Assembly: GCF_000816145.1 (NCBI RefSeq)
Contig: NZ_CP007141.1
Span: forward strand, 1,984,001-2,048,000
DNA: 64,000 nt
Reading direction: 5' to 3'
DNA from: Pseudothermotoga hypogea DSM 11164 = NBRC 106472
Lineage (GTDB): Bacteria; Thermotogota; Thermotogae; Thermotogales; DSM-5069
The notes beneath the pieces are model-generated. The model ran no database searches, had not been told where the DNA came from, and saw only the letters and a program-made list of their open reading frames with translations. This document shows, piece after piece, positions 3,959-32,339 of the stretch. Numbering within the stretch: position 1 is the stretch's first letter; each line of letters opens with the position of its first letter. The position numbers and the translations under genes were made by a program.

Positions 3959-4741
3959 ATGACTGTGGTCATCAGGCTGATTAAAACTGCCATCACTGTT
4001 GCTGTCGCTTATGGTGCTTATCGGTTCTTATACGCAAGCATACTCAAAGGTGCGGAAAGACTCGGTAAAGAACTTCGAATGAAAAACACGCTTCGGATCA
4101 TACTCCTCACGATTACTTTTGTTATCGCTCTTATGGTTGTCCTGGGAATCTGGCGAGTGAACTTGTTACCCTACGTGACGGCCCTTGGAATCGGTGGAAT
4201 CGCGGTCGGTTTGGCAATCCAGGAACCACTTTCGAACTTCATCAGTGGTTTGTTAGTGATATTCACAGGGAAGCTCCACGAGAATGACGTCGTTGAGATA
4301 GATGGTATCACCGGTATCGTCGAGGTTGTGAACTACAACCACACAGTACTGCGGACTTTCGATGGGAAACACGTCTTGGTGCCCAACAAGCAGGTGTGGA
4401 ATCAAAGACTTATCAACTACTGGCCCACGAACGTTAGAAGATTCACCCTGAAGGTTTCAGTTTCCTACGGAAGCGATCTCGAAAAAGTCTTGGAGATACT
4501 CAGAAAATGCATTGAAGAAGAACCATTCGTTGAGAAGTCCCCAGAACGGTCCAACTCGATTGTTTTCGCCGAATTCGGTTCATCCTCGATAGACTTCAAT
4601 GTGAATTTCTGGGTCCAGCGTCAGAACTATTTCGATGCTCTCAACAGTTTGGCAAACAGGATCAAGAGAGAACTCGAAGCCAATGGCATCGTGATACCGT
4701 TCCCGCAACTCGATGTGCACATCAAGGAGAGAGTGGTTTGA
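3959..4741 (+). CDS. mscS: Small-conductance mechanosensitive channel, MscS family
   Basis: A 260-residue membrane protein that would open under membrane tension to release solutes during osmotic downshock. It has three N-terminal hydrophobic segments (about 5-20, 42-62, 70-95). The pore-lining helix carries GIGGIAVGLAIQEPLSNFISG, followed by the beta domain motif ENDVVEIDGITGIVE. Length is close to E. coli MscS. The ATG at 3959 is preceded by GGAGGTG; an in-frame TTG at 3944 would overlap that site. It overlaps the exonuclease gene by 4 nt. Confidence 0.92.
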   Translation: MTVVIRLIKTAITVAVAYGAYRFLYASILKGAERLGKELRMKNTLRIILLTITFVIALMVVLGIWRVNLLPYVTALGIGGIAVGLAIQEPLSNFISGLLVIFTGKLHENDVVEIDGITGIVEVVNYNHTVLRTFDGKHVLVPNKQVWNQRLINYWPTNVRRFTLKVSVSYGSDLEKVLEILRKCIEEEPFVEKSPERSNSIVFAEFGSSSIDFNVNFWVQRQNYFDALNSLANRIKRELEANGIVIPFPQLDVHIKERVV

Positions 4742-27260: not shown

Positions 27261-27381
27261 CACCCGAAGTGGATTATAATCCAGCAAGGCTGCATAAGAT
27301 CGTGCCGCTCATTAAGTTGGAATTTGGTATAAAATCGTGATGAATCTTTTCTTCTCTCATATTTCTTCTGGAGGTGATGGA

Positions 27382-28716
27382 ATGAGGTACGATGTCGTAG
27401 TCGTTGGAGGAGGGCCTGCCGGATTGGTCGCGGCCCTGACTACCAAGAAGTTTTACAAGGACAAGAAGGTGCTCGTGATCAAAAAGACAGAGAAGGAACT
27501 GGTCCCTTGTGGTATTCCTTATGTCTTTCACACACTTGACGGTGTGGAGAACGACTTCATGGGAGTGGAAGAAAGATTTCAAAAGGCAGGAATCGACCTG
27601 CTGATAGATGAAGTCGTCGGCGGTGACACAGATCAAAAGAAGATCGTCACTAAAACAGGAAAAGAGATCATTTATGAGAAACTCATTCTCGCAACCGGTT
27701 CAATCCCGGCAGTTCCCAGAATCGCTGGGATAGATCTTTCAAACGTCTTCACGATCTCTAAGGACGCAAAATATTTGAGCTCAGTGCTCGAGAAGACCAG
27801 AACTTGTAGAAACATCGCCATCATCGGTGGTGGGTTCATAGGCATCGAGGTAGCCGACGAACTGAAGCGGGCCGGAAAGAACGTAACCGTCGTAGAAATC
27901 ATGGATTGCCTTCTACCTGTGTCTTTCGATCCAGACTTTGGAGAGCTGGCACGCAAAGAGATCGAAGCAGAAAATCTGAAGGTCTACACGAGCAGGAAGG
28001 TTGTAGAAATCTACGGGTCGAAATCCGTCGAAGGTGTAAAGCTGGACAATGGAGAAAACATACCCGCGGACGCCGTCATACTGGCAACGGGTTACAAACC
28101 CAACACAGAGCTTGCCCGGCAACTGGGCCTCAAGATCACAGAGTACGGTTTCATAGAAACGGACGAATACATGAGAACGTCTAAGCCAGACGTCTTCGCG
28201 GCCGGTGATTGCGTGCAACACAAGGATTTTCTGACTGGCAAGCCTTCAAGGCTCATGCTCGCCTCGGCCGCCGTTTTCGATGCGAGGATCGTGGCGTCCA
28301 ATTTGTATGGACTGAAGGTTATCAGAACCAACAAAGGTTCGTTGAATGCGTATTCCACCGTCATAGGACACAAAGCGTTCGGTTCCGTGGGAATAACAGA
28401 AAGAACCGCGAAAGAAGAAGGATTTGAAATCGTCGTTGGTAAGGCCGAAGGTATCGACAGACACCCGGGTAAGTTTGACGATACGAGCAAACTCATTGTG
28501 AAACTCATATTTTCCCAAGACAGTAGGATCCTGCTCGGGGCACAACTCTACGGTGGAAAAAGTGTTGGTGAGATCGTGAACATATTGAGTCTTGGAATCC
28601 AAAAGGGTATAACCGCAAACGATTTGTTCACCATGCAGATCGGAACCCATCCACTGCTGACTTCGGCTCCGACGTCTTATCCTCTCGTGATCGCGGCGGA
28701 GCAGGTTCTGCACTGA
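27382..28716 (+). CDS. FAD-dependent CoA-disulfide reductase / NADH oxidase family protein
   Basis: A 444-residue flavoprotein of the one-cysteine pyridine nucleotide-disulfide reductase family. The FAD motif VVVGGGPAGLVAAL is at the start. The redox cysteine is Cys43 in VPCGIPY, the same position as in CoA-disulfide reductases. The NAD(P)H motif IAIIGGGFIGIEVADEL and VFAAGDCVQH follow. It may reduce CoA disulfide, polysulfide or O2. The ATG at 27382 follows CTGGAGGTGATGG. A TATAAA box lies at 27328-27333 and a strong terminator follows. Confidence 0.9.
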   Translation: MRYDVVVVGGGPAGLVAALTTKKFYKDKKVLVIKKTEKELVPCGIPYVFHTLDGVENDFMGVEERFQKAGIDLLIDEVVGGDTDQKKIVTKTGKEIIYEKLILATGSIPAVPRIAGIDLSNVFTISKDAKYLSSVLEKTRTCRNIAIIGGGFIGIEVADELKRAGKNVTVVEIMDCLLPVSFDPDFGELARKEIEAENLKVYTSRKVVEIYGSKSVEGVKLDNGENIPADAVILATGYKPNTELARQLGLKITEYGFIETDEYMRTSKPDVFAAGDCVQHKDFLTGKPSRLMLASAAVFDARIVASNLYGLKVIRTNKGSLNAYSTVIGHKAFGSVGITERTAKEEGFEIVVGKAEGIDRHPGKFDDTSKLIVKLIFSQDSRILLGAQLYGGKSVGEIVNILSLGIQKGITANDLFTMQIGTHPLLTSAPTSYPLVIAAEQVLH

Positions 28717-28823: not shown

Positions 28824-28872
28824 TTGACCACGTGGTCAATCTGTGGTATGATCCTGTTGACCACATGGTCAA
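28824..28872 (+). promoter_or_regulatory. TetR-type promoter/operator with two palindromes
   Basis: A perfect 16-bp palindrome TTGACCACGTGGTCAA (28824-28839) contains the -35 box TTGACC. A -10 box TATGAT (28847-28852) follows at exactly 17 bp. A second copy, TTGACCACATGGTCAA (28857-28872, centre changed by one base), covers the expected transcription start and reaches the ribosome binding site. Centres are 33 bp apart, about three helical turns. The TetR-family gene at 30577 in the same operon is the likely ligand, giving autoregulation. Confidence 0.85.
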
Positions 28873-28884
28873 GGAGGTGTGAAG

Positions 28885-29766
28885 ATGTCTGTCATAGAAA
28901 CCAGAAACCTGTGCAAGTACTATGGAAAGCACAGGGGAATAGTTGACGTTAGTTTCTCCGTTGAGGAAGGAGAGATCTTCGGCTTCATTGGTCCGAACGG
29001 TGCAGGAAAAACCACGACAATAAGGATTCTCCTCGGTTTGATATTCCCAACCTCTGGTACCGCAAGGATCTTTGGTAAAGACTGCACAAGAGAAGGTCAT
29101 GAAATAAGAAAAGAGATCGGGTACGTTCCAGGCGAAGTGAATTATTATTCGAGCGTCACTGTTGATGAACTGCTCAACTACTCGGCGAGCTTTTACGACA
29201 GAGTTGATAAAAAATACATCAAGGAGTTGTGCGAAATTTTCGAACTCGATCCGAAAAAGAAGTTTCGAGAACTGTCTACGGGTAATAAGAAAAAGGTCGC
29301 TATAGTACAGGCCCTTCTACACAAACCAAAGCTGCTCATATGTGATGAGCCGACCAACGGGCTCGATCCAATCATGCAGAACAGACTGTTCGAAATAATC
29401 CGAGAACTGAAAGGGCAGGGTACGACGATCTTTTTTTCTTCACACATACTGAGTGAAGTTCAAAAGCTGTGTGATGAATTCGCGATGATCAAAGAGGGCA
29501 AAGTGGTGAAGACAGGAAAAATAGAGCAGCTGGCCGGGTTCAACTACAAATCCATCACCCTTCAATCGAGGCAGATAGACGAACTCGAAAGGACCCTGAA
29601 AATCCCACATCGAAGGATCGACGACTCAACGATCAGTTTCAAATACAGTGGAGACATTAACGAGCTTTTGAAGAAACTTTCAGAGATTCAGATCGAGAAC
29701 ATATGGATCGAGGATCCTTCGCTTGAGGAACTCTTTCTATCCTTTTACGAGGAGGGGGAAAGATGA
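28885..29766 (+). CDS. ABC transporter ATP-binding protein (TetR-regulated exporter)
   Basis: A 293-residue ATPase with GPNGAGKTTT (Walker A), LSTGNKKKVAIVQAL (signature region), LLICDEPTNGLDP (Walker B) and SSHILSEVQ (switch His). The C-terminal extension of about 80 residues is typical of drug-export ATPases. The ATG at 28885 follows AAGGAGGTG. It is the first gene of ATPase-permease-TetR-aldo/keto reductase. Confidence 0.9.
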   Translation: MSVIETRNLCKYYGKHRGIVDVSFSVEEGEIFGFIGPNGAGKTTTIRILLGLIFPTSGTARIFGKDCTREGHEIRKEIGYVPGEVNYYSSVTVDELLNYSASFYDRVDKKYIKELCEIFELDPKKKFRELSTGNKKKVAIVQALLHKPKLLICDEPTNGLDPIMQNRLFEIIRELKGQGTTIFFSSHILSEVQKLCDEFAMIKEGKVVKTGKIEQLAGFNYKSITLQSRQIDELERTLKIPHRRIDDSTISFKYSGDINELLKKLSEIQIENIWIEDPSLEELFLSFYEEGER

Positions 29767-30563
29767 ACGTCTACACGTGGGAGATGAAGAGGAACATCAA
29801 GACGACTATCGTTTGGATGGTTGCACTCGTGCTCGTGCAGTTGATGTACATATCGGTTTATCCATCCATGGTGAAAGATACCGAGCTTTTGACAAGAATG
29901 ATGAAGCTCATGCCCAAAGCTTTCCTGAGGATCTTCGGTCTGGAAGATCTCGATTTTTCCAACATTTTGAACTATCAGGCCAGCATTTCCAGCATCTACG
30001 TGACCCTGGTTGGAAGCATCTTCGCGGTTCTTCTGACCTGCAAAGTGCTCGCCAAAGAAGAGAGCGAGAAAACCGCCGAATTTCTCCTCTCAAAACCAGT
30101 CAAAAGATCTAACGTTCTTTTGCAAAAGATTTCGAGCACACTGACTTTGATCTTGACGTTCGATCTCGTAATTTGTGTATCTTCACTTTTGATGGTCGAA
30201 TTCTTTAAGCAAGGTGCGGTCGATTACACCAAGTTTTGGCTCTTATGGCTCTCACAGATTCTTCTGCATCTCACCGTCTCAAATCTGGTTTTTGCCGTCA
30301 TCGTTCTTGCTAAACGTCAGGACAGCACCACCTCATTTAGCATTGGTATGACGTTCGTTTTGTACATCCTTGCCATGGCAAGCAAACTCACGGAGAAGCT
30401 CGAGCTCTTGAAATATCTAACGCCCTTCTATTACTCCGAAGGAATCAGAATAGTGAAGTACGGGAGGATGGAACCCGTCTTCTTAGTGATATATTTCTTT
30501 CTGAACCTTGCGCTGGTTCTTTCTTCGCTTTTCTTTTACTCGAAAAAGGACATCTATTTGTGA
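29763..30563 (+). CDS. ABC-2 family permease (TetR-regulated exporter)
   Basis: A 266-residue membrane protein with six hydrophobic segments and the CKVLAKEESEKTAEFLLSKP loop common in ABC-2 permeases of bacteriocin/drug exporters. It overlaps its ATPase gene by 4 nt, so the pair likely forms a 2+2 exporter. The substrate is unknown but probably toxic, given the TetR regulator. Confidence 0.87.
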   Translation: MNVYTWEMKRNIKTTIVWMVALVLVQLMYISVYPSMVKDTELLTRMMKLMPKAFLRIFGLEDLDFSNILNYQASISSIYVTLVGSIFAVLLTCKVLAKEESEKTAEFLLSKPVKRSNVLLQKISSTLTLILTFDLVICVSSLLMVEFFKQGAVDYTKFWLLWLSQILLHLTVSNLVFAVIVLAKRQDSTTSFSIGMTFVLYILAMASKLTEKLELLKYLTPFYYSEGIRIVKYGRMEPVFLVIYFFLNLALVLSSLFFYSKKDIYL

Positions 30564-30576
30564 AGAAGGTGGTGTA

Positions 30577-31209
30577 GTGCACGAAGTCGTGGAGCGAATC
30601 TTGAAGGCTTCCATAGAAGAATTCTCGGAAAAAGGTTACGCAGCCGCTTCGACAAATTCGATCGCTAAGAAAGCGAAAGTGTCGAAAGGTTTGTTGTTTC
30701 ATTACTTCAAGAGCAAGGAAAATTTGTACATCGAATGCTACAAGCACGTTCTTTCCTGGTCTAAGAAAAAATTTGAAGAGTTCGCCAAACAAGTAAAAAA
30801 CGAGGATTTTTTCGAATTCATCAAGAAATGGGGCTTGCAGAAGATCACTCTGGCAATCGAGAATCCCGTCTATTCGAAGTTCCTCCTCACAGTAACGAAT
30901 CTTTCTCCAAAGCTGCGCGCGATCGTACTGGGTTTGATCAGGGAAGCTCTTCTGGATTCGAGAGAGATCTTGCTTGAGAAGATCAAATCCGTGAAATTAA
31001 GACGAGGCATCAGTGAGGAAGATGCTTTAAAATTTATCACGGCAGTTTTCGATGGTGTAGCTAACAGTTATTTGGATCAGTATCGAGACAAACCCGAGGA
31101 ACTTTTGAACAACCTGGAGAGAATCATGGTCGAATCGGACAAGCTGATGGATCTGATAAAATTTGGTATCCTCGACAGAGAGCCGCAACAATTACACAGG
31201 GAGGTGTGA
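30577..31209 (+). CDS. TetR/AcrR family transcriptional regulator
   Basis: A 210-residue regulator. The N-terminal helix-turn-helix reads ILKASIEEFSEKGYAAAS, then NSIAKKAKVSKGLLFHYFKSKENLY. The rest is a helical ligand-binding domain. The GTG at 30577 follows GAAGAAGGTGG; upstream in-frame codons overlap the permease. It most likely binds the two TTGACCAC palindromes in front of its own operon and releases them when it binds the exported compound (inference). Confidence 0.9.
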   Translation: MHEVVERILKASIEEFSEKGYAAASTNSIAKKAKVSKGLLFHYFKSKENLYIECYKHVLSWSKKKFEEFAKQVKNEDFFEFIKKWGLQKITLAIENPVYSKFLLTVTNLSPKLRAIVLGLIREALLDSREILLEKIKSVKLRRGISEEDALKFITAVFDGVANSYLDQYRDKPEELLNNLERIMVESDKLMDLIKFGILDREPQQLHREV

Positions 31210-31211
31210 AA

Positions 31212-32339
31212 ATGCAATACAGAACCTTCAAAAACGTGCGCTGTTCCATCTTAGGCTTCGGAGCAATGAGGTTACCCACACTCAACAACGATGATTCACA
31301 AATCGATGAAGATAAGGCTATAGAAATGATCAGATACGCGATCGATCACGGAGTCAACTACGTCGATACCGCTTATCCTTACCACAGGGGAAGGAGCGAG
31401 ATACTCGTTGGTAAGGCGCTGAAAGACGGCTACAGAGAAAAGACTTTTCTGGCCACGAAGTCCCCTGTTTGGCAAGTGGAAAGTCATGAAGATTTCTACA
31501 AATTCCTCGACGAACAGCTGGAAAAACTCCAAACCGATCACATCGACATGTACCTGATGCACGCTTTGAGTAAAGAGAGATGGGAAAAGATCAAGAGCCT
31601 GAGGTTTGACAAATTCTTCGAACGAGCGAAGGCAGAGGGAAAGCTTAGATTCGCGGGCTTTTCCTTTCACGACAAATACCCCATCTTCAAAAAAATCATC
31701 GACGAATACGATGGCTGGGACTTCTGTCAGATTCAATTGAACTACATGGACATAAACTACCAAGCCGGCTTGAGGGGTCTGAAGTACGCAGCCTCGAAGG
31801 GCTTACCCGTCGTGATAATGGAACCACTAAAGGGTGGGAAGCTTGCGAGGTTGCCCGACAGAGCCATGAGCGTTCTCAGAAAAAGCGGAAAGAACTGGTC
31901 CGCCGTGGAATGGAGTCTAAGGTGGCTTGCGAACTTTCCAGAGGTATCTGTCATTCTTAGTGGGATGAGCACTTTCGAACAGGTGAAAGAGAACGTTGAA
32001 ATAGCAGAGCAGCTGGTACCCAACAACTTGACGGAAGAAGAACTCCGTTTGATCGACGAGTTGAGAAAAACTTTGGAGTCCTACGCAGTGATAAACTGTA
32101 CCGAGTGTGGTTATTGCATGCCATGTCCCCATGGTGTGGATATTCCTGCGAACTTCAGGTTGTACAACGAAGCGATCATGTTCGAAAATTTCGAGATGGC
32201 GAAAGGTGAGTATCGCTGGTTCAGTAGCCAGAAAATCTCTGCAGCCTTCTGCACCGAATGCGGTGAATGTCTGAGTAAATGTCCACAGAAGCTACAGATA
32301 CCAACTTTGATGAAGAAAATCAACGGTGAGCTCTCTTAG
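31212..32339 (+). CDS. Aldo/keto reductase with C-terminal iron-sulfur motifs
   Basis: A 375-residue protein. The TIM-barrel part starts with LGFGAMRLPTL and has DTAYPYHRGRSE (active-site Asp and Tyr) and HIDMYLMHAL. The C-terminal ~80 residues hold two cysteine clusters, CTECGYCMPCPHGVDIP and CTECGECLSKCP, as in ferredoxin-like aldo/keto reductases. It probably reduces a carbonyl using a redox chain. The ATG at 31212 follows GGGAGGTG, and the gene joins the TetR-regulated operon, suggesting detoxification of the same or a related compound. Confidence 0.88.
   Translation: MQYRTFKNVRCSILGFGAMRLPTLNNDDSQIDEDKAIEMIRYAIDHGVNYVDTAYPYHRGRSEILVGKALKDGYREKTFLATKSPVWQVESHEDFYKFLDEQLEKLQTDHIDMYLMHALSKERWEKIKSLRFDKFFERAKAEGKLRFAGFSFHDKYPIFKKIIDEYDGWDFCQIQLNYMDINYQAGLRGLKYAASKGLPVVIMEPLKGGKLARLPDRAMSVLRKSGKNWSAVEWSLRWLANFPEVSVILSGMSTFEQVKENVEIAEQLVPNNLTEEELRLIDELRKTLESYAVINCTECGYCMPCPHGVDIPANFRLYNEAIMFENFEMAKGEYRWFSSQKISAAFCTECGECLSKCPQKLQIPTLMKKINGELS

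What the first reader, a model, noticed from the sequence alone, without database searches (positions are those of the whole stretch)
28824..28872. Twin TetR operators built into the promoter of an ABC exporter/aldo-keto reductase operon
A perfect 16-bp palindrome contains the -35 box, and a second, near-perfect copy covers the start site. The -10 box lies between them at ideal spacing, and the centres are 33 bp apart. The TetR gene is third in the same operon. The unit (exporter ATPase, permease, TetR, Fe-S aldo/keto reductase) looks like a complete sense-export-detoxify module whose ligand is unknown.
Basis: partly seen in the sequence, partly recalled or inferred. Interest (0 to 1): 0.62.

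Follow-up and report, generated by a model that had tools for sequence, protein, structure and literature searches.

The report
Self-repressed exporter operon with twin operators
Two near-identical 16-base palindromes flank the start of an ABC exporter operon in a Pseudothermotoga genome and are almost certainly the docking sites of the repressor encoded in that operon, an ordinary arrangement shared with Thermotoga maritima, while the oxidoreductase gene at the operon's end looks like a neighbour that the operon landed beside.

Summary
No other copy occurs in the 2.17-Mb genome. The pair is conserved where the operon is conserved. Among 103 genomes of the phylum the tandem pattern occurs in five, each time in front of the orthologous exporter ATPase, with no control matches. 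Over 20 orthologous or related promoters, 19 carry TGACYNNNNRGTCA against 0.03 expected. The TetR is the relative (36% identical, same gene order) of T. maritima TM1030, which two reviews list as crystallised on DNA (4I6Z). I conclude that this is an autoregulated ABC-exporter/TetR operon repressed by dimers at two operators: a new member of a known kind. The 'sense-export-detoxify' reading is not supported. The aldo-keto reductase is single-copy and sits elsewhere in every relative except one sister genome, including species lacking the exporter. In two congeners an unrelated membrane gene lies where the exporter-tetR unit lies here. In the sister genome, exporter, tetR, promoter and operators are degraded while the reductase is intact. 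The ligand is unknown.

The parts
28824..28839 (.). Operator O1, perfect 16-bp palindrome TTGACCACGTGGTCAA containing the -35 box
   Evidence: conserved in orthologues
28857..28872 (.). Operator O2, near-perfect palindrome TTGACCACATGGTCAA covering the inferred transcription start and abutting the Shine-Dalgarno sequence
   Evidence: conserved in orthologues
28824..28852 (+). Sigma-A-type promoter: TTGACC, 17 bp, TATGAT
   Evidence: hexamers and spacing kept in orthologues
28872..28877 (+). Shine-Dalgarno sequence AGGAGG, 7 nt before the ATG at 28885
28885..29766 (+). ABC exporter ATP-binding protein
   Evidence: PF00005 E 8.7e-30; no NCBIfam cut-off reached; orthologues
29763..30563 (+). ABC-2 type permease
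   Evidence: PF12679 E 9.6e-17; overlaps the ATPase gene by 4 bp
30580..31209 (+). TetR-family repressor, relative of T. maritima TM1030
   Evidence: PF00440 and PF21256; TM1030 structures E 1e-34; alignment
31206..32339 (+). Aldo/keto reductase with C-terminal Fer4 (4Fe-4S) domain; likely cotranscribed here (4-bp overlap, own SD, ATG at 31212) but not part of the module in relatives
   Evidence: PF00248, PF13187
28736..28758 (.). GC-rich hairpin, likely terminator of the upstream oxidoreductase gene, separating it from the exporter promoter
   Evidence: 10-pair stem called on the - strand; on the + strand the stem is followed by TTTTGTG; similar hairpins after the homologous gene in G001 and G002

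Best explanation
28824-28872 is the promoter of an autoregulated operon (ABC exporter ATPase, ABC-2 permease, TetR) with two operators for its own TM1030-type TetR repressor. One repressor dimer on O1 covers the -35 box and one on O2 covers the start site, so RNA polymerase is excluded. Because tetR is the third gene, repressor supply is set by the same promoter (negative feedback). A small molecule, presumably a substrate of the exporter, is expected to release the repressor and switch the exporter on. Shown here: the sites, their promoter geometry, their conservation with the operon, and the kinship of the regulator to a TetR reported as crystallised on DNA. Inferred: binding by this protein, the direction of regulation, the ligand, and cooperation of the two dimers. 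The downstream aldo/keto reductase gene is probably read from the same transcript in this species as a consequence of where the exporter-tetR unit lies.
For: The exporter-permease-tetR order is conserved in 18 other genomes of the order. The tandem pattern TTGACC-N4-GGTCAA x2 occurs in 5 of 103 phylum genomes, always in front of this operon, with zero control hits. Both operators and their 33-34 bp spacing are kept in G001, G007, G008 and G010 while the rest of the promoter region varies. The Thermotoga-like family keeps pairs of TTGACY-N4-RGTCAA-type sites, also 33 bp apart in L060 and L066, and the third family keeps a single site just after the -10 box. Exact TGACYNNNNRGTCA is present in 19 of 20 promoters against a shuffle mean of 0.027. 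In 41 genomes, 15 of 16 exact TTGACCNNNNGGTCAA sites lie at the promoter of this operon or about 1.5 kb before a weaker tetR match. The TetR of L064 is identical to TM1030 over the 193 residues compared, and TM1030 is listed as a DNA complex, 4I6Z (PMC6018408; PMC4486848). In G003/L007 exporter, tetR, promoter, Shine-Dalgarno sequence and operators have decayed together.
Against: No binding or expression data exist for this protein. The promoters compared are related by descent, so the shuffle statistic overstates the number of independent observations (L062 and L063 are identical). Some orthologues carry only one clear site (L057, L059, L062-L065, L067-L070) and one (L058) only a degenerate site, so the twin arrangement is not essential to the system. 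The sequence of the DNA in 4I6Z could not be checked with these tools.
Confidence: 0.9

Rival explanations
1. The whole four-gene unit is a functional sense-export-detoxify module in which the Fe-S aldo/keto reductase chemically handles the ligand.
For: The reductase start overlaps the tetR end by 4 bp, so cotranscription and translational coupling are plausible. A reductase beside an exporter is a sensible pairing.
Against: The reductase is single-copy at 69-79% identity in 16 other genomes and lies away from the exporter in all of them; two of these congeners (G002, G004) have no exporter orthologue at the threshold used. In G001 and G002 it follows an unrelated membrane protein gene after the same upstream oxidoreductase gene. 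In G003 the exporter and tetR are broken while the reductase keeps 92% identity.
Confidence: 0.12
2. The palindromes bind a different regulator, not the TetR in the operon.
For: No binding data exist for this protein; the genome holds at least one other TetR-family gene.
Against: The sites follow this tetR operon across three families, are otherwise nearly absent from the genomes, and variants appear beside more distant tetR genes as well.
Confidence: 0.05
3. The inverted repeats act in RNA as an attenuator or leader hairpin.
For: O2 is at the start of the transcript.
Against: O1 lies upstream of the inferred start site and is not transcribed from this promoter. The leader folds no better than shuffles (z = -0.03). 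Conservation is of sequence, not only of pairing.
Confidence: 0.02

Closest known systems
TM1030 (T. maritima TetR; PDB 1Z77, 1ZKG, 2ID6, 4I6Z) and its ATPase-permease-tetR operon
   Same: About 36% identity, same gene order, and a related palindrome TTGACTGACCAGTCAA between the -10 box and the ATPase start in the genome encoding TM1030 (L064). Reviews list 4I6Z as TM1030 bound to DNA (PMC6018408, PMC4486848).
   Different: The TM1030 genome has one clear site; the window has two perfect or near-perfect sites with TTGACCA half-sites. The reductase gene is not beside the operon in G021.
FhtR/hrtBA of Enterococcus faecalis (PMC7858072)
   Same: TetR-family repressor of an ABC exporter acting through two palindromic operators in the -10/-35 region; two operators give tight repression.
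   Different: Operators are 14 bp with sequence TTATCAATCGATAA; the ligand is heme. No ligand is known here.
TetR/tetA, the family paradigm
   Same: Dimeric repressor, two 15-bp palindromic operators, control of an exporter (described in PMC3511530).
   Different: tetR is divergent from its target; here it is the third gene of the repressed operon. Different exporter class.

Membership tests
TetR family regulators | N-terminal TetR_N helix-turn-helix domain | tested here: met
   PF00440 62.1 bits against a cut-off of 24
TetR family regulators | Palindromic operator of about 15-16 bp at the target promoter | tested here: met
   Present and conserved as sequence; physical binding not tested
TM1030-type exporter/TetR operon | TetR is closest to TM1030 among solved structures and aligned over nearly full length | tested here: met
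   E 1e-34, residues 5-197
TM1030-type exporter/TetR operon | Gene order ATPase, permease, tetR | tested here: met
   Same order in the TM1030-encoding genome (L064) and other genomes of the order
TM1030-type exporter/TetR operon | Operator half-site TGACY-N4-RGTCA next to the promoter | tested here: met
   19 of 20 promoters
Ligand-induced exporter repressors (TetR, FhtR) | Release from DNA by a ligand that the exporter pumps | not testable with these tools
   No ligand known
Sense-export-detoxify module | Reductase gene associated with the exporter across genomes | tested here: not met
   Adjacent only in the window genome and the decayed G003 copy

The most novel reading that the evidence does not exclude
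In this species the exporter-tetR unit sits where congeners have an unrelated membrane protein gene, just upstream of a reductase found throughout the family, so that the reductase is now induced together with the exporter: a recent regulatory capture that created a working export-plus-reduction unit.
Probability: 0.2. Interest if true: 0.35.

Novelty: new member of a known kind. Interest (0 to 1): 0.2.

Why it matters
It predicts an operator consensus (TTGACY-N4-RGTCAA) and a one-operon regulon for a TetR group with a solved representative (TM1030) whose natural ligand I could not find reported. That gives a ready assay (promoter release) to find the ligand and the exporter's substrate in Thermotogota. 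It also shows that reading function from a single gene neighbourhood would have wrongly tied the reductase to the exporter.

Tried and rejected
A general literature search on the operator sequence returned mostly unrelated papers and no relevant TetR paper. Searches for TM1028-TM1030 and 4I6Z found only passing mentions. RNA hairpin reading rejected. A wider regulon rejected: one-mismatch sites in the genome are below the reversed-pattern control. A first alignment of orthologous promoters used wrong coordinates for three loci and was replaced. One query in the wrong frame failed and was repeated. NCBIfam gave no family above cut-off for the exporter, TetR or reductase, so no substrate can be named.

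Full report
Observation. The two palindromes are present exactly as described. O1 is 28824-28839 and O2 is 28857-28872, and the centres are 33 bp apart. TTGACC inside O1 and TATGAT at 28847-28852 are separated by 17 bp. The start site expected from the -10 box (about 28859-28860, inferred) lies in O2, and AGGAGG begins at the last base of O2, 7 nt before the ATG at 28885. In the whole 2,165,416-bp genome TTGACCNNNNGGTCAA occurs exactly only at these two places; four further places match with one mismatch, fewer than the reversed-pattern control gives. This argues for a one-operon regulon.

Genes. The operon is an ABC ATPase (PF00005), an ABC-2 permease (PF12679), a TetR protein (PF00440, PF21256) and an aldo/keto reductase with a C-terminal 4Fe-4S domain (PF00248, PF13187). 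No NCBIfam family reached its cut-off for the exporter, TetR or reductase, so the substrate is unnamed. The closest solved structures of the TetR are those of TM1030 (E 1e-34; that these entries are TM1030 rests on PMC4486848 and PMC6018408 for 4I6Z, and on my own knowledge for the others). The TetR protein of locus L064 matches those entries identically over the 193 residues compared, which identifies that genome as the TM1030 source or one with the same gene. Two reviews list 4I6Z as TM1030 bound to DNA (PMC6018408; PMC4486848).

Conservation of the operators. I extracted the region before the ATPase gene in 18 genomes of the order that carry ATPase, permease and tetR in that order, plus one (L071) with a more distant tetR placed first. 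Four relatives with 54-58% TetR identity (G001, G007, G008, G010) have the same pair of TTGACC-N4-GGTCAA sites at 33-34 bp with a -10 box between them; the rest of the promoter region is poorly conserved. In the Thermotoga-like family the sites read TTGACY-N4-RGTCAA or nearly so, and pairs 33 bp apart are seen in L060 and L066; L062-L064 keep one clear site. In the third family a single site lies between the -10 box and the gene start. TGACYNNNNRGTCA is present without mismatch in 19 of 20 promoters, against a mean of 0.027 and a maximum of 1 in 1000 sets of shuffles. The promoters are related by descent, so this is not a count of independent events. The exact tandem pattern was found in 5 of 103 genomes of the phylum, always at this operon, with no control matches. 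Of 16 exact single-site matches in 41 genomes, 13 are at this operon's promoter, two (G036, G038) lie about 1.5 kb before a weaker tetR match, and one (G003) is unrelated to either.

Regulator-operator link in distant relatives. Four Desulfobacterota-type loci whose TetR is 25-27% identical (L009, L010, L011, L014) have ATGACC-N4-GGTCAT or closely related sites on both sides of their tetR gene, while several others with a different subgroup of TetR (L008, L012, L013, L015) have none. This fits a TGACC half-site being a property of part of this TetR group, but it was not pursued.

The reductase. Orthologues at 69-79% identity occur once in each of 16 other genomes and are not beside the exporter there. 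G002 and G004 have the reductase but no exporter match at E 1e-60 and no close TetR. In G001 and G002 the order is oxidoreductase (homologue of 27379-28716), an unrelated membrane protein gene, reductase. That membrane gene is absent from the window genome at E 1e-30, and the exporter-tetR unit sits in its place; G001 carries its exporter-tetR unit on another contig. The simplest reading, an inference, is that the unit moved into or replaced a gene at this place in the ancestor of the window species and G003. In G003 (L007) two deletions corresponding to window 29100-30295 and 30420-30506 remove most of the exporter, tetR is frameshifted, and the -10 box, Shine-Dalgarno sequence and both palindromes are altered, whereas the flanking oxidoreductase and reductase stay at 89% and 92% identity. 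G003 is a metagenome assembly, so single lesions could be errors, but the lesions are many and consistent. Operators, regulator and exporter thus decay together, and the reductase does not depend on them.

Mechanism. The best reading is steric repression by TetR dimers at O1 (-35) and O2 (start site), with autoregulation because tetR is the third gene, and release by an unknown ligand. A directly studied parallel is FhtR of E. faecalis, which represses an ABC exporter through two palindromes in the promoter; removing one makes release easier and removing both gives constitutive expression (PMC7858072). Whether the two dimers cooperate here is unknown; 33 bp is close to three helical turns, but the spacing may simply follow from the promoter geometry. 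An RNA-level role is unlikely.

Verdict. Real, well conserved and ordinary in kind: a new member of the TM1030-type exporter/TetR operons with a clean two-operator promoter. The detoxification module is not supported.

Noticed in passing
L007:3281-4400 (Pseudothermotoga sp. RSWP20; G003:C93): Decayed copy of the same operon: two deletions in the exporter, frameshifted tetR, altered promoter and operators, intact reductase.
   Followed up: yes
window:28716-31212 compared with L091 and L092: In G001 and G002 an unrelated membrane protein gene lies between the homologues of 27379-28716 and the reductase; in the window the exporter-tetR unit is there instead.
   Followed up: partly
L009:5918 and 6612; L010:5306 and 6000; L011:4196 and 4881; L014:5921 and 6612: Distant TetR genes in Desulfobacterota-type contigs are bracketed on both sides by TGACC-N4-GGTCA-type palindromes.
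   Followed up: no
G036:C88:4093-4108 and G038:C2:52947-52962: TTGACCGTTCGGTCAA about 1.5 kb before a tetR-like match, suggesting another operon of the same layout.
   Followed up: no
L071 (G006), upstream of the ATPase at 4481: An exporter of the same group with a more distant tetR placed first carries two different palindromes, ATGACTTGACAGTCAT and ATGACTCTTGAGTCAT, starts 16 bp apart.
   Followed up: no
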